Of a DNA stretch of 64,000 nt, positions 1,951 through 32,886 are shown in pieces. The position numbers and the translations under genes are program-made. How positions within the stretch are numbered: position 1 is the stretch's first letter; every line of letters starts with the position of its first letter. The DNA comes from Actinoplanes couchii (GTDB lineage: Bacteria > Actinomycetota > Actinomycetes > Mycobacteriales > Micromonosporaceae). The notes under the pieces are model-generated. The model ran no database searches. It was given only the letters and a program-made list of their open reading frames with translations, and was not told where the DNA came from. The stretch spans positions 248,001 through 312,000 of the forward strand of contig NZ_BOMG01000042.1 of NCBI RefSeq assembly GCF_016862075.1, given 5' to 3'.

Positions 1951-1987
1951 AGTCCACTATGGACTTGTTGTGTGATCGGCGACACAA
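1951..1987. promoter_or_regulatory. Two adjacent inverted repeats ahead of the giant-protein cluster
   Basis: AGTCCA-CTA-TGGACT occupies 1951-1965 (6-bp arms, 3-nt centre). Three bases further on, TTGTGT (1968-1973) and ACACAA (1982-1987) form a second inverted repeat with an 8-nt centre. The half-site GTCCACT (1952-1958) recurs at 2007-2013, directly against the proposed GTG start. Together they make a dense candidate operator region between the GntR gene and the first cluster gene. No convincing -35/-10 pair was found, so the promoter itself is unplaced. Confidence 0.4.
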
Positions 1988-2013
1988 TGACGTGGACCCT
2001 GGGAGTGTCCACT

Positions 2014-5000
2014 GTGAGCGGTGCCCTGCTCGTTCCGATCCATCTCGACGCGTTGCACCTGACCGAAGAACGTACCGTCACCGCGCCGGCCGCCGACTTC
2101 ACCGGGCTGCCGTACTTCGACGGACAACGGGACGTCAACGGCGACCGGCCCTACCTGGGCGACGCGGTCAACGCTCAGCCCCTGCACGACCAGGGGCTGA
2201 TCCTGCGTCCCGGCGTCCACCTGCACTGGTCCCTGCCCGACGCGCTGACCGGCGGCGCCCACGACGACGAGGGCACCACGTTCCCGGTGGTGCCGACCCG
2301 CTGGCTCGTCACCCGCAGCCGGGCCGACACCACCGGGACCGTGTCGGTCGAGCGGCGCTGGGTGGTGGAGAGCGACTACCTGCGACCTTCCGGGGAGGCC
2401 GACGAAGGGTCGGTGCTGTATCCGCTGCCGCCCGAGGACGGGCGACGGCCGTACCGCGGTCTCGGCCGTACCGTCCCCTTCGAGCAGTGGACCGGATCCG
2501 GGACGGGCGCCGCATACCTGCCCGGCCTGACCGTCGTCGGGTGGGGACACCCCACGTTCGCCGCCCTCTACCCGAACTGCCACAGCGTCTTCGGCTTCCA
2601 CGACCCACAACCCGGAGACACCGGGCCCGGACTTCAGTACGACGTGGCCGGCTGGTACCGCGACCCCGCGGCCGACCCGGCAACCGGGATCACCGACCTG
2701 GCCGGGCTCGGCTGGACGATCCGGGCGCTGGTGAGCCGCGAGGAGATCCTGAAACTGCGCGGCGCGTCGCCGGCACTCTGGACGGAACTGCTGGACCGCC
2801 GGTGGCTGACCGCCGACGGCAGCACCGGAGCCCTGGTCATGTCACCGGCGTGGCGGGCCGGACAGCCGCTCGGCGACGCCTTCCGGGAGTTCGAGGAACC
2901 GGTGAACGCGCTGCTCGACGCCGCTCCGGGAACCGGCACGCCGCCGGCCCGGACGGTCTGCTTCGCCAGGCTGAGGTTCGAAGCCGGCGACGGTACGCCC
3001 GGCGAGCCCACCGGCCCGGCCGTCACCGTCGCCGACAGCGGACCCGAGGCGCTGATCGCATACCTCAGCGACGGCGACGACGAGGCCGCCCGCCGGCTCG
3101 ACGCCCTGCTCGGCGCCGCGGCGGTGGGCCACGACGGGCCGGACACCGAGGCGCTGCTCGCCGACGCCCGCCACGAGCGAACCTTCCAGCCGGTGCCCGG
3201 CCCGGTCCGCTGGACGGTGAGCTCCGAACGGGACGAGGGCGAGCCGGCGCCGCTGCCCACCACGATGCCCGGCCTGCTGGCCCGGCTCAACGACGCCGAG
3301 GAGGCCCGCTACCTCGCCGAGACCGAGATCGCCGAACGCAGCCGACGCCTGTTCGCCGACTGGTGCCGCTTCCAGATGTGCGCCTACCCGCCGCTGGACG
3401 AGGCCGCCGACTATCCGGACCTCGACCTGGTCCGGACCTTTCTGGAGAACCGGGCGCTGGCCCCGCTGGAGGAACGCCGCACCGCCCTCGCCCGGCTGAC
3501 CGCGGCCCGGAACCTGGCCGAGGCCCGGGCCCGCGCCGCCGTCCGTCACCTGCCCGGCCTGTCGCTGAGCAGTGTCGCGGGACCGCGGTTCTACCAGCCC
3601 GCCGAACCGGTGGTGCTGCTGACCGGGGACGGCGTCACCCCGTCACCGCGCTACGGCCGGGACGGGCGGCTGCGCCCGGACGGCATGCTGGAGACCCGGG
3701 TCGCGGCCGCCGCCGACCCCGCCGATCCCGAGGCGCTGTGGCAGATCCTCGACGAGGTGTGGCGGGAACTCGCCGATTCCCCGCGAACCGACGAGATCGG
3801 CTTCGCCCTCCTGCGGCGCCCACCCTGGCACCCCGTGCTGCTGGAGTGGCAGGTCGCGTTCCTGCCCCGCACCGGCGCCACCGACCGCTATCCCCAGGAC
3901 TACCTCGCCACGGCGTACGAACTCGGTCCGGACGGCGACGACCTGATCCCCCGGTCCACGGGACAGCCGGTCGAGCCGGGCGCCACCGAGCACTACTCCG
4001 GAGCGGCCATCCTCACCCCCTTCGTCGCGCCCCAGCTGCGGGAACTCATCGCCCGCTACCTCGTCGACCTGGTTCAGCGCCGCGATCTCGACACGTTCGG
4101 CGCGACCGGATCGGACAGCTCCGACATCGACGCGGTGGTGGCGTTCTACCTGGACCGCGCCGACGACCCGGTGCACACGATCGCCCGGGCGTACCAGCGG
4201 CTCGGTACCGGGTTCGCCGGCCTTTCCCAGGCCCTGGGCGGCTTCAACGAGGCACTGCTCGCCCGGCGCCAGGCGACCCAGCTGCCGATCGCCGACCCCC
4301 TCGGCCATCCGGCGGACCGCGCGCTGGCACACCGGGTCGCGGACGCGATCGGTGACGGCGGCACCAGCGCGCCGGTGCCCGCCAACGACTTCAACCCGAT
4401 CCGGGCCGGTGCGCTGCGCCTGGCCCGGTTACGCCTGGTGGACAGCTTCGGCCAGGCCCGCGACCTGTCCTGGGACCGGATCGTGCTGCCCGAGACGCTG
4501 CGGGAACCCGGAAATCCGGGCTGGATCGCGATGCCGCCCCGGCTCACCCAGCCGGCCCGTCTGCATCTGCGCTGGCTGGCGGCGGCCCAGGACGGGCTCA
4601 CCGAAGCCGGCGCCGACGCCGCCGGCACCCCGATCTGCGGATGGATCGTGCCGAACCACCTGGACGGCAGCCTCGCCTTCCACGACGGCGACGGCGTCGC
4701 CCTCGGAGAGGTGGACCCGTTCGCCAAGTGGCAGCCGGCGCCCGGCGCGGCGGCGCCGATCCTGCCCACTCAGGTCCACGATCCCGGTTTCGGCGGCATG
4801 CCCCCGGCCCTGCGCCGGATCGCGGCCCGGCTCACCGTCACCCCGGGGGCGTCGGACACCGGCCAGGCCGCGTATCTGTCCGCCTTCACCGAGGCCCTGG
4901 AATCCGCTCTGGACACCGTCGACCCGGCCGGCGCCGACCAGCAGCGCGACGGCCTCAGCCTGTTGGTGAGCCGGCCGGTCGCGGTGGTCCGGGCCGCGGT

Positions 5001-6129
5001 GGACCTGCAACTGCGCGAGCCACCGGCGGTCGACCAGTCGTGGACCTCGTTCGACCAGGATCTGCGCCGCACCACCCGGGAGACCCGGGACTTCACCGGA
5101 GTACGGTTCCCGGTCCGGATCGGCGCGGGCGGCCGGGCCGGTGACGGGCTGCTCGGGTTCTGGGCGGAGTCCGGCGGCGACACCTTCCGCGCCGTGGCCC
5201 CCGGCGGCACGGCGCCCGAACGGATCATCGCCGCGGACGGTCCCGCCGCCCTGGTGCAGCAGTCGATCGACGACCCGCCGGAGATCCTGACGATGCTCGT
5301 CGACCCGCGCGGCATCGTCCACGCGTCCTGTGGCGTCCTGCCCACCAAAGCCATCGGCCTGCCGTCCGAGCAGTACACCGCCGGTCTCACCGCGATACAG
5401 ACCTCCTTCCTGACCGCGCCCCTGCTCACCAGCCGGGACCGGCTGCACGTGTCGCTGCCCGGCGAACCGGGCTGGACGTGGTCGTGGCTGGCGCCCGAAC
5501 CGGGCCCGGACGGCCCGGCCTGGCGGGAGACACCCGCCGAGGAGACCATCACCCGTGACGTGTTCCTCCAGCACCTGCCCGATGCCGCGGCGCTGTGGGC
5601 GCACCTGCTGGACCCGGCCGTACGCTGGCTCGCCGACCAGGAACCGGGCGTCGTCGCGCTGAGTGTGGCCCGGCGCCGCCGTCCGCAGCTGAGCGGCGAG
5701 TTCGCCGGGCTGGAGGCGCTCGCCGACGAGCTGCTCGGCATCGACCCGGCGTCCGGCACCGCCCCGGCCGCACCGATCACCGCCGAGCAGTTCGCCAGTG
5801 CGATGCCCGAAGGCGCGGACGTCTGGGATCACCTGTGCGCGGCCGGCACCGGATGGCTCGAACCACTCGACGGCGACCCCGGCCGGTGCCGGGTCGTACC
5901 GCCGGATCAGCGGCCCGGCGCGGCCCCCGACGCCGACCGGCCCGACCGGATGGTCCCGGCCGAGCTGGCCGGGCCGTACCGGGTGCTGACCGGCCGGGTC
6001 GCCCTGATCTTCGACCTGTACGCCACCGGGATCGCCGCGATGCGGACCGACGCGCATCACCCCGGCGCCCAGGAGATCCGCGAGGGCTGGCTCACGCTGC
6101 GCCCCGCCCGAGAAGCGAGGACACTGTGA
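2014..6129 (+). CDS. Giant protein of unknown function, first gene of the five-gene cluster
   Basis: About 1371 residues if translation starts at GTG 2014, which has GGGAG 8 nt upstream; an in-frame ATG at 1987 and one at 1948 are alternatives. I do not recognise a named family. There is no signal peptide, lipobox or transmembrane stretch. The N-terminal part is rich in aromatic and beta-prone segments, with conspicuous blocks such as PGVHLHWSLPDALTGG and FPVVPTRWLVTRS. The middle (about residues 400-650) has long charged helical segments, and the C-terminal third returns to a mixed pattern. The coding character (third-position GC) is strong throughout, and the long antisense frame in this region is a shadow. 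The stop overlaps the GTG of the next gene (GTGA), so translational coupling is likely. Size and company suggest a structural or scaffold component rather than a soluble metabolic enzyme; that is inference. Confidence 0.8.
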   Translation: MSGALLVPIHLDALHLTEERTVTAPAADFTGLPYFDGQRDVNGDRPYLGDAVNAQPLHDQGLILRPGVHLHWSLPDALTGGAHDDEGTTFPVVPTRWLVTRSRADTTGTVSVERRWVVESDYLRPSGEADEGSVLYPLPPEDGRRPYRGLGRTVPFEQWTGSGTGAAYLPGLTVVGWGHPTFAALYPNCHSVFGFHDPQPGDTGPGLQYDVAGWYRDPAADPATGITDLAGLGWTIRALVSREEILKLRGASPALWTELLDRRWLTADGSTGALVMSPAWRAGQPLGDAFREFEEPVNALLDAAPGTGTPPARTVCFARLRFEAGDGTPGEPTGPAVTVADSGPEALIAYLSDGDDEAARRLDALLGAAAVGHDGPDTEALLADARHERTFQPVPGPVRWTVSSERDEGEPAPLPTTMPGLLARLNDAEEARYLAETEIAERSRRLFADWCRFQMCAYPPLDEAADYPDLDLVRTFLENRALAPLEERRTALARLTAARNLAEARARAAVRHLPGLSLSSVAGPRFYQPAEPVVLLTGDGVTPSPRYGRDGRLRPDGMLETRVAAAADPADPEALWQILDEVWRELADSPRTDEIGFALLRRPPWHPVLLEWQVAFLPRTGATDRYPQDYLATAYELGPDGDDLIPRSTGQPVEPGATEHYSGAAILTPFVAPQLRELIARYLVDLVQRRDLDTFGATGSDSSDIDAVVAFYLDRADDPVHTIARAYQRLGTGFAGLSQALGGFNEALLARRQATQLPIADPLGHPADRALAHRVADAIGDGGTSAPVPANDFNPIRAGALRLARLRLVDSFGQARDLSWDRIVLPETLREPGNPGWIAMPPRLTQPARLHLRWLAAAQDGLTEAGADAAGTPICGWIVPNHLDGSLAFHDGDGVALGEVDPFAKWQPAPGAAAPILPTQVHDPGFGGMPPALRRIAARLTVTPGASDTGQAAYLSAFTEALESALDTVDPAGADQQRDGLSLLVSRPVAVVRAAVDLQLREPPAVDQSWTSFDQDLRRTTRETRDFTGVRFPVRIGAGGRAGDGLLGFWAESGGDTFRAVAPGGTAPERIIAADGPAALVQQSIDDPPEILTMLVDPRGIVHASCGVLPTKAIGLPSEQYTAGLTAIQTSFLTAPLLTSRDRLHVSLPGEPGWTWSWLAPEPGPDGPAWRETPAEETITRDVFLQHLPDAAALWAHLLDPAVRWLADQEPGVVALSVARRRRPQLSGEFAGLEALADELLGIDPASGTAPAAPITAEQFASAMPEGADVWDHLCAAGTGWLEPLDGDPGRCRVVPPDQRPGAAPDADRPDRMVPAELAGPYRVLTGRVALIFDLYATGIAAMRTDAHHPGAQEIREGWLTLRPAREARTL

Positions 6130-9100
6130 CCGCTCTGGACCGCGGGCTGGCCGTTCACCTGCCCCTCACCGCATCCGGCGGCGACGTCGTGGTCGACGTC
6201 TCCGGCAACGGCAACGACGTGACACTCGCCGGCGCCGCCACCCCGGCCGCCGACGACCTGCTCGGCGGATGCCTGGCCCTCGGCGCGGGCGGCGGGGTCG
6301 TCCTGCCCGCGCTCGGCGACGCCGACGAGTTCACGATCCTGATGTGGGTCCGGCTGGACACCCTGACCGGGGACCGCCCGCTGGTGAGCGGGGCCGGACC
6401 GGGCCTGGCCCTGAACGGGGGTGTGCCCCGGATCGTCGGCGGCGGGTCGTTCACCGGCGCCCTGCGGGCCGGCGCGTGGCAGCATCTCGCGATCGGGCTG
6501 CACGGCCGGACCGCAACGGTGACGCTCGTGGTGGACGGCGGACCGGAACAGACACTTCCCTCTTCGGGTACGCCCGGGGCACTGCCCGCACCCACCCGTC
6601 TCGGCGCGACAGGCCCGGCCGACTGGCGGGGCCGGATCGGCGGCCTGCGGATCTACCGGCGGGCCCTCGGTACCGAGGAGATCCGGCAGCTCCGGCAGAT
6701 CGACCTGGCAGTGCTCGCGGTCCACCTGCCGCTGACCGAACTGACCGACGGCACCACCCCGGACATCGCCGGCACCCTCGCCCCGGCGGTCGCCGGCGGC
6801 ACCGTGGAATCCCACCTGGACGACGTGTTCGGCGCGTGCCTGCGCTTCGACGGCGACTCCGGAACCCTGACCGGGTCGGCACTGCCCGCGCTCACGGCGT
6901 ACACCGTCTCGCTCTGGGTCCGCCCGGAATCCGGCGCGACGACGTGGCAGGGCATCGCCGGCAGCACCTCACGCGCGTTCCAGGTGTGGCTACACCCGGA
7001 CGGCTCGGTGCGGCACCGGTTCCCGGGCGCGGTCGGCCTGACGTTCCCGGACACCCCGCCCGGCAGCGTCCGGGCCGGGTCCTGGCGGCACGTGACGGTG
7101 ACCAACGACGGGGCCACCGCCACCACCTATGTCGACGGCGTCCTGTCCGCGACCGGCCCGGCCGGAGCGGTTCCGGCCGTCGCCCAGGCGCCTCTGCTGA
7201 TCTCCGCGGATCTCGGTGACAGTGCCGGCGGCCGGTTCCGGGGCAGCCTCGCCCACCTGCGGATCCACCGGGCCGCCCTGCCCGCCGGCGAGTTGCGGCG
7301 ACTCATCGACGGCGACCGGGCCGCGATCCTCGCCTTCCGCCGCGGGCATCCGCTCGGATTCCGGCTGACCAGCGCGGACGAGCCGGTGCTGCCGATCGAC
7401 GACGACCCGGTCGGGCACCAGCTGTTCGCCGAGATCAGCAACACCGCCGACGAACCGGTCACGCTGAGCGCGATCACCGGGCCGCCCACCGCCGCGGCAC
7501 ACCACCTCGCGCTGCGGTTCCGGGCCGGCGCGCTCGCCGCCACCTGTCTCGACCCGGCGTACCCGCAAAGGTTGGTCCGTGTCGCCGCGGACCGGTGGCG
7601 GATGAGCGACCCGGTGATGGAGACCGGCAGTGTGGTGTTCTACCTGGCCAGCACGGTCGACCGGACCCTGGGCAAGGGCGGCGTCTGGCACCTGACACTC
7701 GAACACGCCGTCGCCGACGCGGCCGGTGGGGCCCGCGCCACCCGGGTGGAACTGAGCTACCGGGGCCTCTTCTACGCCGGGCAGGACACCCCGCTGGAGG
7801 GAACCCGGAGCCAGCGGCTGTCGATCGTCGACCGGCTCGGGCGCCCGGACATCCCGCTGCACGTCGGCTTCACCGGTGGCAGCACCGTCCTCAACGACGG
7901 CGACACCGAATCCGTGCTGCTGCTGCACGTGGCGAACCTGTCGGCGACCGACGACGTGCCGTTGGCGCCGAGCGGAGGCAGCGCCGCGCCGACCCGGCTG
8001 CGGATCTCCTTCGATCACGCCCCGGGCAACGCGGGACCGTCCCGCCCCTGGGCTCTGGGCACCGCCGACGACCTGAAGGACGTGGACGTTCCTGACCACC
8101 CCGGATGGAAGCTCGAACGCTCGCCGGGGCTCGCGGAGGCCACCGAACTGGTGCTGACCCCACTGTCGGCGACCGTCCTGGGACCGCGGGAGCTGATGCA
8201 GATCCCGCTGGCCCGGATCCGTTCGTCGCTGCCCACCGGGCCCGCGAACATCACCGTCGAGTACGAGAACGTGCCCGGCTACCAGGACGGCCGTTTTGTG
8301 TGCCAGGTGCAGAAGGGGCCGCTGACCACAGCCGGTCCGCGCGTCGGGATCGGGACGGCCGGGCCCGCCGCGGCCCTGCACCTGCGCGAGCGGATCGGAA
8401 CCCCGCACGGCCCGAACACCGGAACCGTGCTGATCGACCACGAGAACGCCGGAGGAGTGTCGAGCGTCGTCTTCCGCAGCGCCGTGAATCGCGGCGGCGA
8501 CTACGGCTACCTGCAGTATCAGGACTCGGCGACCCCCGGCGCCGCCGGCGAGAGCGCCCGGCTGCTGATCGGGACCTCCAACGACTACAACGACCACGTG
8601 ATCCTCCAGCCGCAGTCGGGCAACGTCGGGATCCGGACCGCCGATCCCAAGGGAACCCTGCACGTGGCGGGCGACTACTACGGCAAGGGCAAGGTCACCC
8701 TGCACGCGAACGAGGGCGACCGGGGCAACGGCACCGCGATCCTCCAGGCCGGCGACGACTCCGGCACCTCGGCGGTGGACCTGGCGCTGCGGGCCCAGTC
8801 CGCCGGCCAGCCGATCGAGGTGGCCCGCATCGGCGCGAACGGCCGGATGACGGTGGGCGCGGTCACCACCCCGAACGCCCGGTTCACCGTGCAGGAGTCG
8901 AGCGCGATCAGCGCGTACGACACCAGTGCGGGATTCGGCAGCGAGTACGTCACGGTGATGTTCCACGGCCGTATCGGCAGCGGCGGAACCCGCGACCACT
9001 ACCTGTTCGTCCTCCCCGATCACGCCACCGCCCACGTCGAGTCGACGGTCCTGATGCACGACGTCAACTCGAACACCAACAGGTACGTGGCCCGGGCCGT

Positions 9101-9308
9101 CTGCATGGTCTACCGCCAGTGGGTCGAGCCCCCGGTCGTCGAGCTGGTGGCCGACGGCTCGTACTCGAAATCCAGCGGCGTGGCAAACCTCTACGGCGCC
9201 CGGGTCATGAACTCCGGCAACGACATCCTGGTCCGGGTGAGCCAGGGCACACACGCCACCACCAGCGTCTACCGGGTGGTCGTCCGCTACCTGAAGGCGA
9301 AGGGGTGA
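6126..9308 (+). CDS. LamG/concanavalin A-like protein with C-terminal tail-fibre-like repeats
   Basis: A 1060-residue protein starting at GTG 6126, overlapping the previous stop. Two LamG/jelly-roll domains are recognisable at about residues 5-190 and 195-395; each carries the FTILMWVR or YTVSLWVRP strand and a closing GRIGGLRIYRRAL or GSLAHLRIHRAAL segment. A beta-rich region follows. Then come repeats of the VGIGT-x-P-x-A-x-LHL type at about residues 740 (VGIGTAGPAAALHL), 834 (VGIRTADPKGTLHV) and 908 (MTVGAVTTPNARFTV), a pattern typical of trimeric phage tail-fibre and adhesin shafts. No signal peptide or S74 chaperone motif was seen. Two carbohydrate-type binding heads plus a fibre-like shaft suggest a binding or receptor-recognition role. 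Whether it is cell-attached or released cannot be told from the sequence. Confidence 0.82.
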   Translation: MTALDRGLAVHLPLTASGGDVVVDVSGNGNDVTLAGAATPAADDLLGGCLALGAGGGVVLPALGDADEFTILMWVRLDTLTGDRPLVSGAGPGLALNGGVPRIVGGGSFTGALRAGAWQHLAIGLHGRTATVTLVVDGGPEQTLPSSGTPGALPAPTRLGATGPADWRGRIGGLRIYRRALGTEEIRQLRQIDLAVLAVHLPLTELTDGTTPDIAGTLAPAVAGGTVESHLDDVFGACLRFDGDSGTLTGSALPALTAYTVSLWVRPESGATTWQGIAGSTSRAFQVWLHPDGSVRHRFPGAVGLTFPDTPPGSVRAGSWRHVTVTNDGATATTYVDGVLSATGPAGAVPAVAQAPLLISADLGDSAGGRFRGSLAHLRIHRAALPAGELRRLIDGDRAAILAFRRGHPLGFRLTSADEPVLPIDDDPVGHQLFAEISNTADEPVTLSAITGPPTAAAHHLALRFRAGALAATCLDPAYPQRLVRVAADRWRMSDPVMETGSVVFYLASTVDRTLGKGGVWHLTLEHAVADAAGGARATRVELSYRGLFYAGQDTPLEGTRSQRLSIVDRLGRPDIPLHVGFTGGSTVLNDGDTESVLLLHVANLSATDDVPLAPSGGSAAPTRLRISFDHAPGNAGPSRPWALGTADDLKDVDVPDHPGWKLERSPGLAEATELVLTPLSATVLGPRELMQIPLARIRSSLPTGPANITVEYENVPGYQDGRFVCQVQKGPLTTAGPRVGIGTAGPAAALHLRERIGTPHGPNTGTVLIDHENAGGVSSVVFRSAVNRGGDYGYLQYQDSATPGAAGESARLLIGTSNDYNDHVILQPQSGNVGIRTADPKGTLHVAGDYYGKGKVTLHANEGDRGNGTAILQAGDDSGTSAVDLALRAQSAGQPIEVARIGANGRMTVGAVTTPNARFTVQESSAISAYDTSAGFGSEYVTVMFHGRIGSGGTRDHYLFVLPDHATAHVESTVLMHDVNSNTNRYVARAVCMVYRQWVEPPVVELVADGSYSKSSGVANLYGARVMNSGNDILVRVSQGTHATTSVYRVVVRYLKAKG

Positions 9309-9312
9309 CCCG

Positions 9313-11094
9313 ATGGCCTGGACTCTGAAGATTCACCACATCGACGTCGTCGGATCGGGAGACGCGACGCTGATCGAGGCCGAGGATCCGACGGTGGCGG
9401 GGGCACGCCGGACCATGTTGATCGACGGCGGTCGCATCGCCCACGCGAACAACCTGCACCAGCACCTGACAACAGTGGGCAATGTGACTGCGGCCAGCCC
9501 CTTGAACATCGTCGCCGTCACCCATTACGACGTGGATCACATGGGTGGGATCTTCTCCCTGTTCAATCAGGGCCACGTCGAGTACGCCAACGTCCGCGTC
9601 TACGACCAGGGCGAACCCCTCGCCGACAACAATCCTTACCTGCGTTACCTGTCCGCGCTGCGCCAGGCGCCCAACCGGCGACGGGTGACCGGCAACGTCA
9701 TGAGCGAGTGGCTGAGGCCCGGACCGTTCCGGACCCGCGCCGGTGTCCAGCTGGCTCCGCCGCAGCTGCCGCCCGGAATGGTCATGACGTCGCAGCCGGT
9801 TCGCCTCATCGCCGGATTGCCGATGCAGGGCATGCCGGCCCTGCAGCCTCAGGTAGCCCCTGGTGTGCCGCTTCCCGCGGCACAGGTCAACGACTGGTGG
9901 TGCCCGCACTGGCTCGTCGGTCGTGAGGTCCTGTGGGCCACCGACACCGGTGATCTGGGCGTCGTTCCGGCCGGAGCTCCGACCGTGCACTGCATCGCCG
10001 CGAACCGGTATGTCCGCAATCCCGCGGGCGGGGCCACCTATCTGGCGGCCGGGCTCGGCATCGCCACCGTGCAGAACGAGAAGAGCCTGGCCTTCGAGGT
10101 TCGGTTCGGCAACTTCCGCTACTACATCGGCGGAGACATCGAGACGGCTCAGGAGACGATGATCGCCGCGAACCTGAACCCCACCAACGATGTCGCCGGG
10201 CGGGTCCAGGTGGTGAAGGCCAGCCATCACGGCGCGGCGACCGCGAGCGCGCCCGGGTTCATCGCCCGGATGCGGCCCGACGCCGTGATGATCTCGAACG
10301 GGCAGAACAACCAGTACGGGCACCCGCTGCCGCCGACCGTCGCCACCTTGGACGGACTGGTCGGCGTCGTTCCCACGCGTCGACGGATCTGGCACTACCT
10401 GACCGGCTACGACGTCCCCTTCGGCGCGGCGCCGCAGACGGCCGGTGGAGTCAACTCCCGGACCGGGGGCAACCCGCCTGCCAACACGGCAGGCGACATT
10501 CTCGTCAGGGTCACGGCCACACAAGCGAATGCCCCGGCGATCGGCTCGGCCGGGACCGCCCTCACCGGAGCCATCACCGCGACCTCCACGATTTCCGGTG
10601 TCGCGGCACCTCCTGGTACCGCGGCCGCTGCCATCGAGGCTCTGTACAGCGCCCCGCACCCGACCACCGCCGCGCAGGACGTGGTCACCGTGGTGCTCAC
10701 CGGACTCGGGCTTGCCGGTCCTGCCGCGACTGCCGTGGCGGCTGCGGCAGTACCCGCCGCCGTAGCGGCCGCGGTGGCTGCGCCCGGGGCACACGTGGAT
10801 GCCTTCGTCGCAGCCATGCGCGCCGCGGTCATGGCACAACCCGGCATTACCCAGAGCCAGGTTTTTGCGGCAGCCGCGACGGCAGCCGTGGCCTGGTATG
10901 GATTCTGCAGGATCGGGTCCGGCGCGAGTATCGATCCGACGATGCTCGCGAGAATCTTGTCGAAGGCCGTGAACATCGACGTCCATGCGGCGATCGTGGC
11001 GGCCGCAGCCGCCATGACTCCCGGTGCGACCGGGATGTTCACCGTCTTCTACGACAACCTCAACGCCCAAACCACGACCATCACCCACTTCTGA
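9313..11094 (+). CDS. Metallo-beta-lactamase-fold (ComEC-like) hydrolase with Ala-rich C-terminal extension
   Basis: A 593-residue protein. The N-terminal 370 residues form an MBL-fold domain: the zinc signature THYDVDH is at residues 70-76, a GGD motif near 275, and SHHGA at 304-308. A downstream ISNGQNNQYGHP block is typical of the ComEC/Rec2-associated MBL branch. The last 190 residues are very rich in Ala and other small residues and resemble a coiled or low-complexity module of unknown role. There is no membrane segment, so it is not ComEC itself. Its codon choice is visibly looser than that of its neighbours (more A/T at third positions), and it is the only member not overlapping the gene before it. 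The substrate is unknown; members of this branch include nucleases and phosphodiesterases. Confidence 0.85.
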   Translation: MAWTLKIHHIDVVGSGDATLIEAEDPTVAGARRTMLIDGGRIAHANNLHQHLTTVGNVTAASPLNIVAVTHYDVDHMGGIFSLFNQGHVEYANVRVYDQGEPLADNNPYLRYLSALRQAPNRRRVTGNVMSEWLRPGPFRTRAGVQLAPPQLPPGMVMTSQPVRLIAGLPMQGMPALQPQVAPGVPLPAAQVNDWWCPHWLVGREVLWATDTGDLGVVPAGAPTVHCIAANRYVRNPAGGATYLAAGLGIATVQNEKSLAFEVRFGNFRYYIGGDIETAQETMIAANLNPTNDVAGRVQVVKASHHGAATASAPGFIARMRPDAVMISNGQNNQYGHPLPPTVATLDGLVGVVPTRRRIWHYLTGYDVPFGAAPQTAGGVNSRTGGNPPANTAGDILVRVTATQANAPAIGSAGTALTGAITATSTISGVAAPPGTAAAAIEALYSAPHPTTAAQDVVTVVLTGLGLAGPAATAVAAAAVPAAVAAAVAAPGAHVDAFVAAMRAAVMAQPGITQSQVFAAAATAAVAWYGFCRIGSGASIDPTMLARILSKAVNIDVHAAIVAAAAAMTPGATGMFTVFYDNLNAQTTTITHF

Positions 11095-11111
11095 CCGGCG
11101 GTGACGTGAGC

Positions 11112-14100
11112 ATGACGTATGACGGGCGGCCTCTGGACGCCATCGAGACCGCGCTGCGCCGGGCCGTCAGCGGGGGAGTGCTGCCACTGAGCGGTGAGAT
11201 CATCGCCGATTCCGGGTTCGTCGCGTTCCTGCGGGCGCTTCCCGGCAAGAAACTCGCCGTCAACGCCCCGGTCATCACCCTGTCCGGCAAGGGCTGGCCC
11301 GCTGTGCTCACCGTCAGCGGGAAGGCGCGGGAGGCCTGGCCGGTGAGCGCGTACGGCCCGGACGCCTTCGCCGTGGACAGCGTCACGGTGACGATCTCGC
11401 GGGCCGACGCCACAGCCCCGGCGCTCGTCGGATTCCAGGCGGTCGGCAAGGTTCGGGCCGGGACCGTCACGCTGCCGGTCACCGCCAGTCTCACCGACAG
11501 CGGCGAACTGGCCTGTGTGCTCACCGACGGCGACCACGGCCCGCTCTCCCTGCCCGCGCTCGTCGAGCAGGTCAGCAACTCCGGCGCCCGGATCGACCTG
11601 CCCGCGGACCTGCCGTTCGCCGATCTCGTCAAGCTCACCGAACTCGACCTGATCGTCGGGTTCGGGGCCACCGCCCGTACCGAAATGCGGGTCGCCGTGG
11701 GGTCCGACCTGGACTGGCCGCTGGTCGGCGACGAGATCGTGCTGCGCTCGGTGGGCGCCGGCCTGGCGATCAGCCGGACCGTGTCGGCGGAGGGGTACAT
11801 CTCCAGCAGCTTCCGTGGCGCGCTCTCCGCGAGCCTGCGGATCGGCGCCGACTTCGACGTGGTGCTCGGGTTCGGCGGCGGGCGGCCCTGGGAGATCGCG
11901 CTGCTGCCCGCCGACGGCGCCCTGCCGACCCTGCCGCAGCTGGCCGCGTTCGCCGGGGGACAGCCCTTGCAGGATCTGGTCCAGGGTGGGCTCGACGCGC
12001 TGGACCTGGAGGAGATGGAGCTGGACGCGGTACGGATCGGTTTCGACCCGGTCACCGCGCCGACCCTGCGGTACGTCCGGATCGCCGCCCACCTGATCTT
12101 CGCCGGAGTCCGCCTCGACCTGTCCGTACGGCTGATGCCCGGTTTTGCGTTCGGCGGTTCGCTGCGCCCACCGTCCACCATCGGCCTGCGTGCCCTGTTC
12201 ACCCACTTCTTCGGCAACGCCGACGGCTTCCCGGACATCACGATCACCCAGCTCGGCCTGACCGCTGACCCGTCGGCGGGAACCTACGAGCTGGTGGTGA
12301 CCGCCGAGGACGACGACCTGACGATCGGGCCGATCGGGCTGCGCGGCCTGCACATCGACATCGCCAAGGACACCACCGGTTTCCACGGCACGATCGGCGC
12401 CGACATCGAACTCGGCGGCGCCACCCTGATCATCACCGCGGGCCGCCCGGCCGCCGCCGGGCCCTGGGTTTTCAGCGGCTCCACCGGCCCGGGCCAGCAG
12501 ATCTCCATCGCCACGCTGCACAGCGATCTGGAGGCGAAGTTCGGCTCCTTCACCCTGCCGCCCGCCGTGCAGGGCCTGACGATCGACAACCTGGACATCG
12601 AGTTCGACACCGCCGGATCGTTCTCGTTCGCCTGCCACCTGATGTTCCCGGTCGGTGCGGACACCACCGTCGACCTCACCCTTCTGCTGGACGTACGCAA
12701 GGACGGCACCGGGCCCGCGACGGTGACCGCCCGCGGCACCCTGCTCGTCGGCGACCTGCGCTTCGACGTGGACTTCGCCCGCAACGACGGCGGCACGGCC
12801 CTGCTTGCCGCCTACACCGCCCAGCCCGGTCAGCAGGCGCTCCGGCTCAAGGACCTGTTCGCCCCGCTGCTCGCCGGTTCCCCGGGGGCAGCCGCGATGA
12901 TCCCGGACAGCCTCACCCTGCAGATCAAGGACGTCTTCGTCCACCTGGACCGGCCTGCTACCCCCGGCGCCGGCGCCACCGTGCTCGCCGCCCTGGACCT
13001 GGGCGCCGCCATCGATCTGACCCAGCTTCCCCTGATCGGCCGGGAGCTTCCCGCCGGGCAGACCCTCACCGTCGACGATCTGCGTGTCGTGATCGCCTCG
13101 GCGCCGGTCGGCACCGCCCGGTTGGCAGTGCTCAACGGCATGCTCCCGCCGGGGATCGCGCCGCTGCCCACCACCGACCCGCTCACCGCCGGGGTCACCT
13201 TCGCCGCCGTGCTGTCCCTCGGCGGCGAGAAACAGCCGCTCACCCTGCCCACGTCGGCCGGATCGGGCACCGGCACGGTGAAAGCCGCCGCGGTTACCGG
13301 GCCCACCGCCGCGCCGGACAGCACGAAGTGGATCACCGTGCAGCGCTCGTTCGGGCCGCTGCGGCTCGGACGGGTCGGGTTCGCCTACACCGGCGGCTCG
13401 CTGTGGTTCCTGCTGGACGCGGGGATCGCCCTCGGCGGCCTCGCCTTCTCGCTGAACGGCCTCGCCGTAGGCTCACCGTTGCAGGAGTTCTCACCCACGT
13501 TCGACCTGCGCGGACTCGGACTCGACTACGCCAACGGCCCGCTGAGCATCGGCGGGGCCCTGATGCGCAGCACTCTCACCGGCACGGACGGCGTCACCTA
13601 CGACGAGTACGAGGGCAGCCTGCTGCTCAAGACCGAACAGCTGACGTTGACCGCGCTCGGGGCGTACGCCTATGTGAGCGGATACCCGTCGCTGTTCGTT
13701 TACGCCGTGCTCGACTACCCGATCGGCGGCCCGGCGTTCCTGTTCGTCACCGGTCTGGCCGCGGGGTTCGGCTACAACCGGCGGCTGATCGTCCCGCCGA
13801 TCGACCAGGTGGCACAGTTCCCCCTGGTCAGTGCGGTGACCGGCGAGACCACCACAGCGCCGGACCCGCTCGCGCAGCTGACCCGGCTGCGGGCTGCGGT
13901 GGTGCCCTCGTCCGGTGACGTGTTCCTCGCGGCCGGCATCCGGTTCACCTCGTTCAAACAGGTCGACACGTTCGCTCTGCTGATCGTGCTGCTCGGCGGC
14001 CGGTTCGAGATCGACGTGCTGGGCCTGTCCACGATGCGGTTGCCGGCCGCGCCGGGCGTGCCGCCGATCGCCGAGATCCAGATGGCGCTCAAGGCCGGGT

Positions 14101-15392
14101 TCGTTCCCGACGAGGGTTATCTCGGCGTACAGGCGCAGCTGACCTCGGCGTCGTTCCTGTTCTCCCGGGACTGCCACCTGACCGGCGGGTTCGCGTTTGC
14201 GGTCTGGTTCAGCGGTGAGCACCGCGGTGACTTCGTCGCCACCGTCGGCGGCTACCGGCCTGGTTTCCGGGTGCCGGCGCACTACCCGCAGGCGCCCCGG
14301 CTCGGGTTCACCTGGCAGGTCAGCGCGGAACTGTCGGTCAAGGGCGAGGTCTACTTCGCGCTGATGCCGGGTGCGCTCACCGCCGGTGGCAACCTGCAGG
14401 CCAACTGGACGAGCGGGCGGCTCGCGGCGTCGTTCTCGGCCGGTGTGGACTTCCTGCTCGCCTGGCAGCCGTACCACTACGAGGCGAGCCTCTACGTCCA
14501 CTTCGCCGCCCGGTACACCTACCAGGCGTTCGGCACGCACACCATCTCGGTCGACGTCGGCGCGGACCTGTCGCTGTGGGGGCCCGAGTTCGCCGGCACC
14601 GCCCGTATCCATCTGTCGCTGATCAGCTTCGACATCGCGTTCGGTGACACCCGGGCCAGGCCCGCACCGCTCGACTGGGGCGCCTTCCAGCAGGCGTTCC
14701 TGCCCGCCGACACGGACGACGCGCCGGTCGGAACCGTGACCGTCGGCGACGGTTTGATGCGGGACGGCGAGACCGGCGTCGACTGGGTGCTCAGCCCGAA
14801 ACGGTTCAGCCTCGTCACCGACTCCGCCGTGCCGGCCAAGACCTACGACCTCGGCGCGGGTACGGTCATCGGCGATCCGGAGGCGCCGAACACCGCCCTG
14901 GGCATCGGGCCGATGGACGTCCGCGCTGGTCGGTTCGCCTCCCGGACCACGGTACGGATCACCCGTGACGGCGTAGACGTCACCGGCGAGTTCGGGTTCG
15001 CCCCGGTTCACAAGCGGGTGCCGCGTGCCCTGTGGGGTGAGTCGGTGGCGCCGAGTCTGGACGGCGACGCTCTCCTCGGGCAGGCACTGACCGGGTTCGT
15101 GATCACCCCGACCGCCCCGGTCCAGCCGGACGACGACCCGCCCCGGACCGTTACCGATGAACGGGCGCGGTACGAGACCGTCGAGGTCCCGGGCGGCTAC
15201 CGCTGGCAGGACCCGGTCGTCTGGCAGGAGGACAAGACGCAGGATCCGGCGGCGGCTTTCGGCCGTACCGCCGCCCGTACCGCACTGCTCGAAGCACTCG
15301 GCGTGCCGGCCGAGGTCACCGTGGACGCGGGCGCCACCGCCGCGTTCCTGGTGGCCCCGGTCTCCGGCCGTCTGACCGGGGGAGACCGATGA
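11112..15392 (+). CDS. Giant DUF6603-type protein
   Basis: About 1426 residues from ATG 11112, with a GGTGA-like site 7 nt upstream; GTG 11106 is an alternative. The region of roughly residues 745-1195 has the highly hydrophobic, beta-rich pattern of DUF6603, with the characteristic block VYAVLDYPIGGPAFLFVTGL and then FGYNR. The N-terminal 740 residues are a long series of beta-strand segments alternating with Gly/Asp turns, with no recognised domain. Neither a signal peptide nor clear alpha-helical membrane spans are present. Amphipathic strands alternating with short polar turns would suit a large beta-solenoid or beta-barrel-like surface, possibly lipid-facing (inference). The stop overlaps the ATG of the following gene. 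Confidence 0.85.
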   Translation: MTYDGRPLDAIETALRRAVSGGVLPLSGEIIADSGFVAFLRALPGKKLAVNAPVITLSGKGWPAVLTVSGKAREAWPVSAYGPDAFAVDSVTVTISRADATAPALVGFQAVGKVRAGTVTLPVTASLTDSGELACVLTDGDHGPLSLPALVEQVSNSGARIDLPADLPFADLVKLTELDLIVGFGATARTEMRVAVGSDLDWPLVGDEIVLRSVGAGLAISRTVSAEGYISSSFRGALSASLRIGADFDVVLGFGGGRPWEIALLPADGALPTLPQLAAFAGGQPLQDLVQGGLDALDLEEMELDAVRIGFDPVTAPTLRYVRIAAHLIFAGVRLDLSVRLMPGFAFGGSLRPPSTIGLRALFTHFFGNADGFPDITITQLGLTADPSAGTYELVVTAEDDDLTIGPIGLRGLHIDIAKDTTGFHGTIGADIELGGATLIITAGRPAAAGPWVFSGSTGPGQQISIATLHSDLEAKFGSFTLPPAVQGLTIDNLDIEFDTAGSFSFACHLMFPVGADTTVDLTLLLDVRKDGTGPATVTARGTLLVGDLRFDVDFARNDGGTALLAAYTAQPGQQALRLKDLFAPLLAGSPGAAAMIPDSLTLQIKDVFVHLDRPATPGAGATVLAALDLGAAIDLTQLPLIGRELPAGQTLTVDDLRVVIASAPVGTARLAVLNGMLPPGIAPLPTTDPLTAGVTFAAVLSLGGEKQPLTLPTSAGSGTGTVKAAAVTGPTAAPDSTKWITVQRSFGPLRLGRVGFAYTGGSLWFLLDAGIALGGLAFSLNGLAVGSPLQEFSPTFDLRGLGLDYANGPLSIGGALMRSTLTGTDGVTYDEYEGSLLLKTEQLTLTALGAYAYVSGYPSLFVYAVLDYPIGGPAFLFVTGLAAGFGYNRRLIVPPIDQVAQFPLVSAVTGETTTAPDPLAQLTRLRAAVVPSSGDVFLAAGIRFTSFKQVDTFALLIVLLGGRFEIDVLGLSTMRLPAAPGVPPIAEIQMALKAGFVPDEGYLGVQAQLTSASFLFSRDCHLTGGFAFAVWFSGEHRGDFVATVGGYRPGFRVPAHYPQAPRLGFTWQVSAELSVKGEVYFALMPGALTAGGNLQANWTSGRLAASFSAGVDFLLAWQPYHYEASLYVHFAARYTYQAFGTHTISVDVGADLSLWGPEFAGTARIHLSLISFDIAFGDTRARPAPLDWGAFQQAFLPADTDDAPVGTVTVGDGLMRDGETGVDWVLSPKRFSLVTDSAVPAKTYDLGAGTVIGDPEAPNTALGIGPMDVRAGRFASRTTVRITRDGVDVTGEFGFAPVHKRVPRALWGESVAPSLDGDALLGQALTGFVITPTAPVQPDDDPPRTVTDERARYETVEVPGGYRWQDPVVWQEDKTQDPAAAFGRTAARTALLEALGVPAEVTVDAGATAAFLVAPVSGRLTGGDR

Positions 15393-17212
15393 CCGACGCC
15401 ACAGTCTTCCGTTCCGCGCACCGGCCCGCGCCGGGCATGGCCGACGGCACCTACACGATCACCGTGCAGCAGGACCTCACTGTCCAGCAGGACCTCACCG
15501 TTCCCGGGGTCCACCGGCCGGTGCGCCCGGTCACCCGTAGCTTCGTCATCGGCGGCAGCCACGGAACCCTCGCGCCGCAGGACGTCGTGGCGGTGTTCCC
15601 GCCGGACGGCAGCATCGGCGACCACTCCACCGCCCTGCCCCACATCCTGCTGGACCGCGGCACCATCCCGTGGGAGCAGTCCGCCGAGGGAACTCTGCCC
15701 TGGCTGGCCCTGCTGCTGTTCGACGAGGCGGACACGACGACCACCGCTGTCATGAGCGTCGCGGAGGCCCGCCTGCTGCCCGGCCTGACCGGTCTCCCGG
15801 TCACGCCCGGTCTGCGGGACACCGACCGGATCACCGTGCTGACCGCCGCACCGGACCTGCTCGCCGCGATCATGCCCACCGGACCGGAACTGGCGGTGCT
15901 GACCCACACCCGGCAGCATCGCACCGGCCAGGTCCCGGACACCGACGAGGTCGCCGCCGTGTCCGGCAACCGGCTGCCCGCACCCGGCCGGACCAGCACC
16001 GTCCACCTGGTCTCGGTCGCCGCTCGCTACCGCGACGGGGCCTTCGACACCGGAGCCGGTGATCAGGTGCACCTGGTGTCGCTGACCAGCTGGCGGTTCG
16101 CGTGCATCGACGACGGCGCCGGCTTCAGCGCCCTGGCGCAGGCACTGGACACCGGTGCGCTCGCGTTGCCGCCCCGGGGAGTCCCGGCCGCTGACGCGTA
16201 CCTGCAGAAGGGTTTTGTGCCGGTGCCGCACGCGCTGCGCCAGGCCGACCGGACGGTGTCGTGGTTCCACGGCCCGCTCACCCCGCAGGCCGGCGCCGAT
16301 CCCGGCCAGGACTACGAGCCGGTACGGGTGGCCGACGAGCTGCTGCGCATCGACAGCGACACCGGGATGCTCGACGTCTCCTACGCCGCCGGGTGGCAGC
16401 TCGGCCGGCTCCTCGCCCTGAACAGCAGGCGCGTCGCCACCGCGTTCGGTGTGTGGCGGCGTGCCCATCGGCGTGCCCGCGACACCGGGATCCCCCCGAT
16501 CCCGTTGCCGGGCGCTCCCGACCCCGACCCGGATCCGCCGGTGATCGTGGAGCAGTGGCTGGCCGGGCTGAACCTGCTGGACGGGGTGCCGTTCAACTAC
16601 CTGGTCCCGGACGAGCGCATGCTTCCACCGGAGTCCCTGCGGGTGTTCCGGCTCGACGGCCGCTGGATCCGGTCCCTGCTGGACGGCGCGCTGAGCCTGG
16701 GCCGGGTCACCGCCGGCGACCTGGCCCACGACAGTGAACACCTGGCTCCGCTCATCGAGAATCGCCACCCGGGCGCGAGCGGGGTGCTGCTCGACTCGGC
16801 GCTTGTCGCGGGCTGGCCGGGACTGATCGTCGACGCCGAGGGGCCGGACGGCACGATCCTGCCGGCACTGCGTGTCCAACGGCTCAGCGGCACGGTCCTG
16901 CTCTGCCTGTTCGACGGCGAACCGGCCCGGCTGCGCCTGCACCTCGCACCGGAGTCCCTGCACCTGGGCGTCGACCACACCGGCGGCGAATACGTCAAGA
17001 AGTTGCGCGACGACGCCGGCATCCCGAAGCAGGGCCCGGAGGTCCCGGTGCCGTGGCGCGGCGCCGCCGTCGGCCGGGTCGTCGACGTCGCCGCGCTGGC
17101 CGCCGCCGTCTCCGCTCCGGTGACGGCGGCCGGATTCGCCCAGGCGATGATCGAGGGCGTGGTGAGTGTGGTCCTGTCCGGGACGGATCAGCGGAGCACA
17201 GCGCGCCCTTAG
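15389..17212 (+). CDS. Protein of unknown function, last gene of the cluster
   Basis: A 607-residue protein starting at ATG 15389, overlapping the DUF6603 gene by 4 nt. I do not recognise a family. It looks globular and mixed alpha/beta, without signal peptide or membrane segments. Pro/Asp-rich turns are frequent (for example PGAPDPDPDPPVI in the middle). Near the N-terminus it carries a short tandem duplication (QQDLTV twice). The overlap with the preceding giant gene argues that it is an obligate partner in the same complex or pathway. Its stop is 3 bp from the stop of the convergent catalase gene. Confidence 0.78.
   Translation: MTDATVFRSAHRPAPGMADGTYTITVQQDLTVQQDLTVPGVHRPVRPVTRSFVIGGSHGTLAPQDVVAVFPPDGSIGDHSTALPHILLDRGTIPWEQSAEGTLPWLALLLFDEADTTTTAVMSVAEARLLPGLTGLPVTPGLRDTDRITVLTAAPDLLAAIMPTGPELAVLTHTRQHRTGQVPDTDEVAAVSGNRLPAPGRTSTVHLVSVAARYRDGAFDTGAGDQVHLVSLTSWRFACIDDGAGFSALAQALDTGALALPPRGVPAADAYLQKGFVPVPHALRQADRTVSWFHGPLTPQAGADPGQDYEPVRVADELLRIDSDTGMLDVSYAAGWQLGRLLALNSRRVATAFGVWRRAHRRARDTGIPPIPLPGAPDPDPDPPVIVEQWLAGLNLLDGVPFNYLVPDERMLPPESLRVFRLDGRWIRSLLDGALSLGRVTAGDLAHDSEHLAPLIENRHPGASGVLLDSALVAGWPGLIVDAEGPDGTILPALRVQRLSGTVLLCLFDGEPARLRLHLAPESLHLGVDHTGGEYVKKLRDDAGIPKQGPEVPVPWRGAAVGRVVDVAALAAAVSAPVTAAGFAQAMIEGVVSVVLSGTDQRSTARP
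15464..15499 (+). repeat. 18-bp tandem duplication inside the 607-residue protein gene
   Basis: GTGCAGCAGGACCTCACT (15464-15481) is followed immediately by GTCCAGCAGGACCTCACC (15482-15499), with two differences. It encodes VQQDLT twice and keeps the frame. It looks like a small, fairly recent in-frame duplication. Confidence 0.8.
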
Positions 17213-17215: not shown

Positions 17216-18739
17216 TCAGGCCTTGCGCTGCATGCTCGACCGGGCCGGATTGCCCTGGTCAGCGGCCTTGGGATCGGTCTCGCCCTGCTTGGCCCGGACC
17301 CCGGCGGCGATCCGGTCGCCGAGGGGCTTGTCGACGTGGCGCCAGTAGTCGAAGGCGCGTTCCAGGATCGGCTCGCTGACCCCGTTGAGCAGGTGACCGA
17401 CCACGTTGTCGACGAGCCGGGTGCGGGCGTCGTCGTCGAGCACCTCGCGGACCAGCGTGCCGGCCTGGCCCCAGTCGTCGTCCTCGGCGTGCAGGGTGTA
17501 CGCCGAGCGGACCATGTCGCCGTCGGAGTACCAGGTGCCGCCGTCGTCGGTCAGTGCCGGATCGGCTTTCGGGCCGCCGTACGAGTTGGGCGCGTACACC
17601 GGGTCGGTGGCGTTCTGCATGCGCATCGCCCCGTCCTTGGTATAGCTGTGCACCGGCGACTTCGGCGCGTTCACCGGGATCTGCCGGTAGTTGACCCCGA
17701 GCCGGGCCCGGTGCGCGTCGGAGTAGCTGAAACCACGGGCGAGCAGCATCTTGTCCGGCGACAACCCCGTACCGGCGACGGTGTTGTTGGGTTCGAAAGC
17801 CGCCTGCTCGATCTCGGTGTGGTAGTCGGTGACGTTCCGGTTCAGCGTCATCCGGCCGACCTCCTGCAGCGGGTAGTCGCCGTGCGGCCACACCTTGGTC
17901 AGGTCGAACGGGTTGAACCGGTAGTTCCGGGCCTCCTCGAACGGCATGATCTGCACGTGCAGCGTCCAGCTCGGGTGCTGCCCGTCGCGGATGTGCTCGA
18001 ACAGGTCCCGCTGGTGGTAATCGGTGTCGGCGGAGGCCATCTGGTCGGCCTCGTCCTGGGTGAAGGTCTCGATGCCCTGGTCGGTCTTGAAGTGGTACTT
18101 GACCCAGAACTTCTCGCCGGCCGCGTTGATCCACATGTAGGTGTGGCTGCCGTACCCGTTCATGTGCCGCCAGGTCCGCGGGATCCCGCGGTCGCCCATC
18201 AGCCAGGTGACCTGGTGCGCCGACTCCGGCGACAGGCTCCAGAAGTCCCACTGCATGTCGTGGTCGCGCAGGTTGTTGTCGGACCGGCGCTTCTGCGAGC
18301 GGATGAAGTGCTGGAACTTCATCGGGTCGCGGATGAAGAAGACCGGGGTGTTGTTGCCGACGATGTCGAGGTTGCCGTCGCGGGTGTAGAACTTCACCGC
18401 GAACCCGCGCGGGTCACGCCAGGTGTCGGGGGAGCCGCGCTCCCCGGCGACGGTGGAGAACCGCACGATCACCTCGGTCTCCTCGGCGGGGGAGAAGACC
18501 GCCGCCCGGGTGTACGCGCTCAGGTCACGTGTCACCCGGAAGGTGCCGAACGCGCCGCCGCCCTTCGCGTGCGGCTGGCGCTCCGGAATGCGTTCCCGGT
18601 TGAAGTTCGCCATCTGCTCGATCAGGTAGTGGTCCTGTAAGAGCAGCGGGCCGTCGGGGCCCACGGTCAGCGAACGTTCGTCGCTGGCTACGGGAACCCC
18701 GGCATCGGTCGTGGTGGGTGGTCTCTGCGAATCGGTCAC
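17216..18739 (-). CDS. katA: Monofunctional haem catalase
   Basis: A 507-residue catalase that converts hydrogen peroxide to water and oxygen in the cytoplasm; the length is typical of small-subunit clade 3 enzymes. The distal haem histidine lies in [13 protein letters not shown] (about residue 57), the catalytic Asn in [12 protein letters not shown], and the proximal tyrosine signature reads [13 protein letters not shown] (about residue 335). The start is GTG 18739. It is convergent with the giant-protein cluster (3 bp between stops) and divergent from the M28 peptidase gene, with a 64-bp shared upstream region. No OxyR or CatR gene is adjacent, so regulation cannot be assigned. The symbol is by family and does not assert orthology to a specific strain's gene. 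Confidence 0.95.
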
Positions 18740-27169: not shown

Positions 27170-27243
27170 GGCCTCTCATCGATGTTACGCAGACGTTACA
27201 AAACCGGGTCGTCCGATGATGTTACCTTGCTTACACGTGTCAG

Positions 27244-27255
27244 TTACTCGAGTAA
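27244..27255. promoter_or_regulatory. Candidate LacI operator before the GH3 operon
   Basis: TTACTCGAGTAA is a perfect 12-bp palindrome with the central CG usual for LacI-family operators. It lies 19 nt before the GH3 start and 75 nt from the LacI start. The surrounding 27170-27273 region also contains three GTTAC elements (near 27184, 27194 and 27222). Repression of the operon and possibly autoregulation are inferred. Confidence 0.5.
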
Positions 27256-27273
27256 GTAAGCGGTGATCCTGAT

Positions 27274-32884: not shown

Positions 32885-32886
32885 CG

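What the first reader, a model, noticed from the sequence alone, without database searches (positions are those of the whole stretch)
1951..17212. Five-gene cluster of giant proteins with an MBL-fold enzyme: candidate undescribed system
Five collinear genes spanning 15.2 kb, with three 4-nt overlaps and gaps of 4 and 17 nt, encode proteins of about 1371, 1060, 593, 1426 and 607 residues. Only the LamG/fibre-like, MBL-fold and DUF6603-type regions are recognisable. None of the five has a signal peptide or clear membrane spans. There is no sheath, tube, AAA ATPase or baseplate gene nearby, so it is not a standard contractile injection system. The tight organisation implies one machine or particle with a receptor-binding fibre, large beta-rich components and a hydrolase.
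Basis: partly seen in the sequence, partly recalled or inferred. Interest (0 to 1): 0.85.

Follow-up and report, generated by a model that had tools for sequence, protein, structure and literature searches.

The report
Toxin-delivery-like cassette with swappable cargo enzyme
Five neighbouring genes form a cassette found in many bacterial phyla, in which four large constant proteins, one with relatives built like virus tail fibres, travel with one enzyme that is swapped again and again, which looks like an undescribed machine for delivering enzymes or toxins to other cells.

Summary
The five-gene cluster is real and recurs in at least eleven phyla (by record title). The commonest order is g1-g2-X-g4-g5; g4-g5-g1 and g1-g4-g2-g5 orders also occur. 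The window's genome has no contractile-sheath gene. Four genes are constant: g1 (no known domain), g2 (LamG lectin; many relatives carry phage tail-fibre domains), g4 (DUF6603; predicted giant amphipathic beta-sheet protein, barrel-like in part) and g5 (confident model, no significant fold match). The gene just upstream of g4 varies: a ComEC-type MBL-fold enzyme here, elsewhere a deaminase, DNase-I-like protein, lipase, subtilase, M64 peptidase, PhoD phosphatase, LanM-dehydratase-like or domainless protein. On a g4-core tree the cargo class changes at least 29 times among 61 loci, with only mild clustering. Sister loci with 76-95% identical g4 cores carry unrelated cargo, and the g4 N-terminal region usually diverges with it. 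Best reading: an undescribed, non-contractile, cytoplasm-assembled particle that delivers a swappable effector, working like a Tc toxin but without Tc sequence features. Export, targets and membrane passage are inferred, not shown.

The parts
1987..6129 (+). g1, 1380 aa, constant component of unknown fold
   Evidence: no Pfam at E<=1; 536 homologues; present in 27 of 27 genomes searched, all chosen for carrying g5; a 28th was not held; 2 of 34 homologues carry LamG
6126..9308 (+). g2, 1060 aa, lectin / tail-fibre-like receptor-binding protein
   Evidence: Laminin_G_3, two stretches; of 45 proteins scanned (window included) 24 have LamG_3, 11 phage tail Collar, 8 Peptidase_S74, 6 Gp10_C; phrog_1800 tail collar fibre in 13, best 5.3e-83. 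The window's own g2 matches only LamG-type models
6861..7292 (+). best-scoring LamG stretch of g2 (residues 246-389)
9313..11094 (+). g3 = slot X, variable cargo; here a ComEC-type MBL-fold enzyme, 593 aa, with THYDVDH, SHHG and NQYGHP motifs
   Evidence: ComEC model 5.4e-12, far below its cut-off; ComEC chains in the PDB, best 1.3e-8; motifs
9520..9540 (+). MBL metal-binding motif THYDVDH (residues 70-76)
   Evidence: meaning of the motif recalled
11106..15392 (+). g4, 1428 aa, DUF6603 protein, giant amphipathic beta-strand protein
11106..12785 (+). g4 N-terminal region (about residues 1-560) that in relatives usually diverges together with the cargo
   Evidence: border taken from L007 and its kin, not from the window itself
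13338..14753 (+). DUF6603 core of g4 (residues 745-1216)
15389..17212 (+). g5, 607 aa, constant component; confident AlphaFold model (pLDDT 91), no fold match at E<=0.001 in PDB or BFVD

Best explanation
The cluster is one cassette for an undescribed effector-delivery particle. Shown by comparison: four constant components (g1, g2, g4, g5) travel together, while the gene just upstream of g4, usually an enzyme where a domain is known, is replaced repeatedly, mostly together with the N-terminal part of g4. Inferred mechanism: the proteins lack export signals, so they assemble in the cytoplasm and are released, probably by lysis. g2 binds surface glycans of a target cell through LamG and fibre domains. 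g4 holds the cargo through its N-terminal region, and its amphipathic beta-strands form a hydrophobic shell or insert as a beta-barrel-like pore. g5 docks on g4, and g1 is a further structural part. The cargo (here a ComEC-like MBL-fold protein, probably a nuclease) then acts inside the target.
For: Linkage: g5 in 78, g4 in 71, g1 in 56 and g2 in 55 of 81 loci; order g1-g2-g4-g5 in 38 (loci). In 40 regions fetched from DUF6603 hits, 24 have a g4 of at least 200 bits; of these g5 lies nearby in 23 and g1 in 21. Slot X: 74 proteins fall into 30 BLAST clusters, while all labelled g1, g4 and g5 proteins fall into one cluster each. Of 40 slot-X proteins or pieces scanned with Pfam, 16 passed a gathering score: deaminase, Exo_endo_phos, Lipase_3, DUF4135, Lactamase_B, S8, M64, PhoD, WD40. 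The cargo class changes at least 29 times on a g4-core tree of 61 loci with 21 classes. Sister loci with different cargo: L074/L077 (g4 core 95%), L007/L105 (90%), L009/L012 (89%), L044/L049 (76%). Among pairs with g4 core over 68% identical, the N-terminal region aligns over 500 residues or more in 14 of 17 same-cargo pairs but 2 of 25 different-cargo pairs. Tail-fibre domains in g2 relatives. g4 resembles ApoB, LptD and outer-membrane barrels, with 22 of 45 strands amphipathic at shuffle p<0.1. g4-g5 fusions in 6 of the 16 longest of 120 listed g4 homologues. Signal-like N-termini in 0-3.4% of components against 15.5% of flanking genes. No sheath in the window's own genome.
Against: No particle, secretion, target or toxicity has been observed. 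The g4 model has pTM 0.57, Foldseek TM-scores to its matches are 0.05-0.23, and the barrel match has rmsd 11 A, so a closed pore is not shown. Several cargos (subtilase, M64, PhoD, WD40) are not typical toxins, and 24 of 40 scanned slot-X proteins or pieces have no Pfam domain over its cut-off. Cargo is mildly clustered on the tree: 29 changes against a shuffled mean of 31.2 (9 of 300 shuffles as low), MBL against others 14 against 20.5 (2 of 300). Exceptions to co-divergence: L012 aligns poorly with its same-cargo kin L015, L105 and L106, and L043 aligns well with L033 and L062 despite a different cargo class. 21 of 45 g2 proteins have no LamG_3 hit and the window's g2 shows no tail-fibre domain. 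Sheath genes do occur elsewhere in 20 of 28 cassette genomes.
Confidence: 0.62

Rival explanations
1. An intracellular conflict or anti-phage system with a swappable effector: the large proteins sense infection and release a nuclease, protease or lipase that kills the cell.
For: The g3 MBL matches defence MBL models (LmuA 1.8e-16, RTasMBL, Avs1a) and ComEC/Avs1a/6A-MBL models below their cut-offs. Effector diversity resembles known defence systems (recalled). No signal peptides.
Against: No NTPase, nucleotide cyclase or other signalling domain found in any of the five proteins. g2 relatives carry phage tail Collar, S74 and lectin domains, which suit an external target. The ten genes scanned around the window's cassette are ordinary.
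Confidence: 0.15
2. A non-toxic extracellular enzyme-display or degradation complex: the fibre binds polysaccharide and the enzyme processes nutrients.
For: LamG, B_lectin and CBM-like domains in g2 relatives. Subtilase, M64, PhoD and lipase cargos.
Against: No export signals. Deaminase and DNase-like cargos are expected to act on nucleic acids inside cells (inference). At least 29 cargo changes on the tree would be unusual for nutrition.
Confidence: 0.12
3. An accessory of an extracellular contractile injection system, or a degenerate phage tail, using a sheath encoded elsewhere.
For: Tail-fibre relatives of g2. Sheath homologues exist elsewhere in 20 of 28 cassette-bearing genomes at E<=0.001, 14 over the cut-off.
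Against: The window's own genome (100% complete, 11.46 Mb) has no sheath match, nor do 7 others of the 28, whose completeness is not told. No g5 relative in viral contigs or in 50,697 phage records. No sheath, tube, baseplate or AAA domain in the five proteins or in ten neighbours of the window's cassette.
Confidence: 0.06

Closest known systems
Tc (ABC) toxin complexes
   Same: Multi-protein set with constant machinery and a variable enzyme, glycan-type receptor binding, a cocoon and translocation, as a working analogy (starts of abstracts of PMC6868009 and PMC7264150 seen in the search listing)
   Different: No Tc, SpvB or Rhs domain in any of the five at E<=1. The cargo is a separate gene upstream of g4, not the C-terminus of a TcC. 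g1, g4 and g5 have no sequence match to any solved structure.
Extracellular contractile injection systems (PVC, Afp, MAC)
   Same: Tail fibres and variable cargo; frequent in environmental bacteria (search listing only)
   Different: No sheath, tube, baseplate spike or AAA ATPase in the cassette; own genome lacks a sheath.
Polymorphic toxin systems
   Same: Effector domains recombined onto constant trafficking parts; HNH and deaminase folds and Laminin-G domains occur there too (passages of PMC3482391 seen)
   Different: No trafficking domain of that survey recognised here; no immunity gene identified; the variable part is a whole gene plus the N-terminal region of the next gene.
ComEC-type MBL nucleases and defence MBL proteins (Avs1a, LmuA)
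   Same: g3 matches their models weakly and has the HxDxDH, HHG and YGHP motifs
   Different: Scores far below curated cut-offs; no membrane-channel domain; sits in this cassette.

Membership tests
Extracellular contractile injection system | sheath protein (PF04984) in the locus or genome | tested here: not met
   no match in the window's own genome; none in the five proteins
Extracellular contractile injection system | tube, baseplate and AAA ATPase genes in the locus | tested here: not met
   none in the five proteins; none in ten neighbours scanned. Neighbours of other loci were clustered but not annotated: apart from slot-X families no neighbour cluster is in more than 11 of 81 loci, and that one holds regulators
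Extracellular contractile injection system | tail-fibre receptor-binding protein | tested here: met
   in relatives of g2; the window's g2 itself shows only LamG-type matches
Tc (ABC) toxin | TcA/TcB/TcC (SpvB, TcdB-mid, Rhs) homology | tested here: not met
   no such Pfam family at E<=1 in any of the five proteins
Tc (ABC) toxin | variable enzyme on constant machinery | tested here: met
Tc (ABC) toxin | cargo enclosed in a beta-shell and translocated through a pore | tested here: inconclusive
   amphipathic beta protein; closure and cargo packing not seen
Polymorphic toxin system | variable effector domains | tested here: met
Polymorphic toxin system | adjacent immunity gene | tested here: inconclusive
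   no gene fits between cargo and g4 in most loci (gap 67 nt or less in 45 of 47), but small genes lie between g2 and X in some loci (L007, L050, L106) and were not tested
Phage or prophage tail module | presence in phage genomes | tested here: not met
   for g5 only: 18 stretches matched a pattern, none a relative; no match
Anti-phage defence system | reduced phage infection | not testable with these tools
   needs a bench test; g3 resembles defence MBLs, no NTPase found
Outer-membrane beta-barrel proteins (g4) | signal peptide and assembly in an outer membrane | tested here: not met
   2 of 104 g4 proteins or fragments look signal-like by a crude screen; many hosts are actinobacteria
Outer-membrane beta-barrel proteins (g4) | closed barrel fold | tested here: inconclusive

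The most novel reading that the evidence does not exclude
A new class of non-contractile, non-phage protein-delivery particle, spread over at least eleven phyla. A DUF6603 protein forms the cargo-holding shell or translocon, a phage-tail-fibre-like lectin aims it, and a cargo-plus-adaptor module (slot X plus the g4 N-terminal region) is exchanged as a unit.
Probability: 0.5. Interest if true: 0.93.

Novelty: categorically new. Interest (0 to 1): 0.86.

Why it matters
If right, it adds a delivery machine to the short list of known ones (Tc toxins, contractile injectors, secretion-system effectors), one scattered over large-genome environmental bacteria. It would give a function to DUF6603, for which the searched library holds no paper, and to two large families without any Pfam name (g1, g5). 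Slot X would also be a finder's guide: whatever protein is encoded just upstream of a DUF6603 gene is a candidate effector, including many here without a known domain.
Full report
What is in the window. Five plus-strand genes run from 1987 to 17212 with spacings of -4, +4, +11 and -4 nt. They lie between a GntR/FCD regulator (1238-1879) and a convergent catalase (17216-18739, minus strand). Ten neighbours scanned are ordinary: TPP enzyme, GntR, catalase, M28 peptidase, histidine kinase, response regulator, MMPL, amidohydrolase, LacI, GH3. Pfam finds LamG in g2, DUF6603 in g4 (8.5e-137), a sub-threshold Lactamase_B in g3 and nothing in g1 or g5, even at E<=1. g3 looks like a ComEC-type MBL: NCBIfam ComEC 5.4e-12, far below its cut-off, PDB ComEC chains to 1.3e-8, motifs THYDVDH, SHHG and NQYGHP. 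The own genome (11.46 Mb) has a single DUF6603 match. Of 60 genomes searched with g1 (the own one included), 3 matched: the own one and two partial matches at 34-36% identity. The cassette is therefore rare among its kin.

It recurs as a unit. A scan of a collection of 84,980 species genomes with a g5 profile gave 445 relatives, of which the best 80 were kept. By record title they come from Actinomycetota, Cyanobacteriota, Chloroflexota, Acidobacteriota, Myxococcota, Bacteroidota, Balneolota, Verrucomicrobiota, Pseudomonadota, KSB1, Nitrospira and Desulfuromonadales. In these 80 plus the window, g5 is labelled in 78, g4 in 71, g1 in 56 and g2 in 55 of 81, with contig ends and the 10-kb limit counted as misses. 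The order (slot X left aside) is g1-g2-g4-g5 in 38, g1-g4-g2-g5 in 4 and g4-g5-g1(-g2) in 5, the rest partial or mixed. Other than slot-X families, no neighbour cluster is in more than 11 of 81 loci, and that one includes the window's response regulator. All 27 genomes searched again contain g1 (28 asked, one not held).

To lessen the bias of a g5 query, DUF6603 was sought in phylum-wide draws, centre genome included. Genomes over the cut-off: Chloroflexota 3 of 151, Cyanobacteriota 7 of 339, Bacteroidota 14 of 345, Myxococcota 7 of 188, Actinomycetota 12 of 396. Forty regions from these hits were fetched, not every hit; three of them (L112, L114, L123) are second loci of genomes known from the g5 scan. 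24 have a g4 of at least 200 bits; of these g5 is present in 23, g1 in 21 and g2 in 10. 13 have a weak g4 and 3 gave no g4 call. In 7 of the 13 weak ones g4 is followed by a protein of about 870-1160 aa and one of about 1550-1940 aa. The first is g5-like (hhalign of nine such proteins: probability 95, E 3.7e-8, over about the first 200 residues of g5); the second is unrelated to g1. Among the 16 g4 homologues of at least 1640 aa in a list of 120, 6 are g4-g5 fusions. No g5 relative lies in viral contigs or phage records; 10 of 72,556 plasmid records hold one: Streptomyces 6, Embleya 2, Paenibacillus 2.

One slot is variable. The gene just upstream of g4 differs from locus to locus, although it is tightly packed: 67 nt or less to g4 in 45 of 47 loci, a 4-nt overlap in 10. 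74 slot-X proteins form 30 BLAST clusters: 29 MBL, 8 of about 1000 aa without a known domain, the rest 3 or fewer. 25 of the 29 MBL-cluster proteins have [ST]HxDxDH. Pfam was run on 40 slot-X proteins or pieces. Over the gathering score, 16: Bd3614-like deaminase (L044), Exo_endo_phos (L050), Lipase_3 (L074), DUF4135 (L084, L109), Lactamase_B (L054, L046, L015), Peptidase_S8 (L115, L117, L124), Peptidase_M64 (L128, L129), PhoD (L137, L140) and WD40 (L133). Below it: HNH (L059), GIY-YIG (L110), PhoD (L130). The others have none over the cut-off. That DUF4135 is the LanM dehydratase domain is recalled.

The cargo is swapped on a conserved chassis. On a quick tree of the g4 core (61 loci; 25 of 58 inner branches weakly supported) the 21 cargo classes need at least 29 changes, and MBL against all others needs 14. 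Shuffled labels on all 61 rows need 31.2 on average (9 of 300 as low as 29) and 20.5 (2 of 300 as low as 14), so cargo is mildly clustered but far from inherited with the machinery. Between the MBL and ~1000-aa classes alone there is no clustering (246 and 226 of 500 shuffles as low). Starred sister pairs with different cargo include L074/L077, L044/L049, L009/L012, L007/L105, L050/L075 and L109/L111. Yet the cargo is a 1061-aa protein in L007 and an MBL-cluster protein in the others, and the first ~556 codons of g4 no longer align as DNA.

By protein, among the 42 locus pairs with g4 cores over 68% identical, the g4 N-terminal region aligns over at least 500 residues in 14 of 17 pairs with the same cargo class and in 2 of 25 with different classes. 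The exceptions are L012 with L015, L105 and L106 (same class, 225-281 residues) and L043 with L033 and L062 (different class, 515-526 residues). In every core-identity band same-class pairs have the higher median N-terminal score. Pairs are not independent. So the cargo and the g4 N-terminal region mostly behave as one exchangeable module.

Mechanism, step by step. Shown: recurrent cassette, variable cargo, co-diverging g4 N-terminus, fibre-type g2 relatives, amphipathic g4 model, no sheath in the own genome. Inferred: assembly in the cytoplasm; release without a signal peptide; binding through g2; cargo held by the g4 N-terminal region; membrane passage through or with g4; action of the cargo in the target. 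No immunity gene was identified, which may point to targets other than kin (protists, fungi, animals), but small genes between g2 and X in some loci were not tested.

Comparison. It works like Tc toxins or contractile injectors in logic (constant carrier, variable enzyme, receptor binder), but fails their defining membership tests: no Tc/Rhs domains, no sheath. The polymorphic-toxin survey PMC3482391 (passages only) mentions Laminin-G domains in toxins but shows no such cassette in the passages seen. No paper in the held library contains DUF6603.

Noticed in passing
L113, L127: Two g4 proteins of about 3220 aa carry a long N-terminal extension related to each other, without a Pfam domain in the first 1600 residues; possible natural cargo-g4 fusions.
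   Followed up: partly
L115, L116, L117, L120, L129, L130, L133: A distant DUF6603 clade has g4, a g5-like protein and a third protein of about 1550-1940 aa unrelated to g1: a second type of the cassette.
   Followed up: partly
L105: At the Microcystis site the cassette looks decayed: transposase-like open frames (by eye), no g1 or g2, and g5 interrupted by another open frame.
   Followed up: no
L036, L028: Two myxobacterial loci (by title) have no slot-X gene and carry two g2-like genes before g4.
   Followed up: no
L046: Herpetosiphon aurantiacus carries two g4-g5 pairs within about 40 kb, the second with the full cassette.
   Followed up: no
P0159, P0166, P0174, P0192, P0208, P0215, P0222: Some g5 homologues carry extra stretches of roughly 100-230 residues at differing places.
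   Followed up: no
window 26189-36047: A LacI-type regulator beside a GH3 gene begins a run of large ORFs that may be a glycoside-utilisation cluster (the rest by eye); a tRNA-Gly lies at 35833-35928.
   Followed up: partly
H1-H8 (plasmid records): g5 relatives (24-33% identity) lie on very large Streptomyces clavuligerus and Embleya plasmids and on Paenibacillus plasmids.
   Followed up: no
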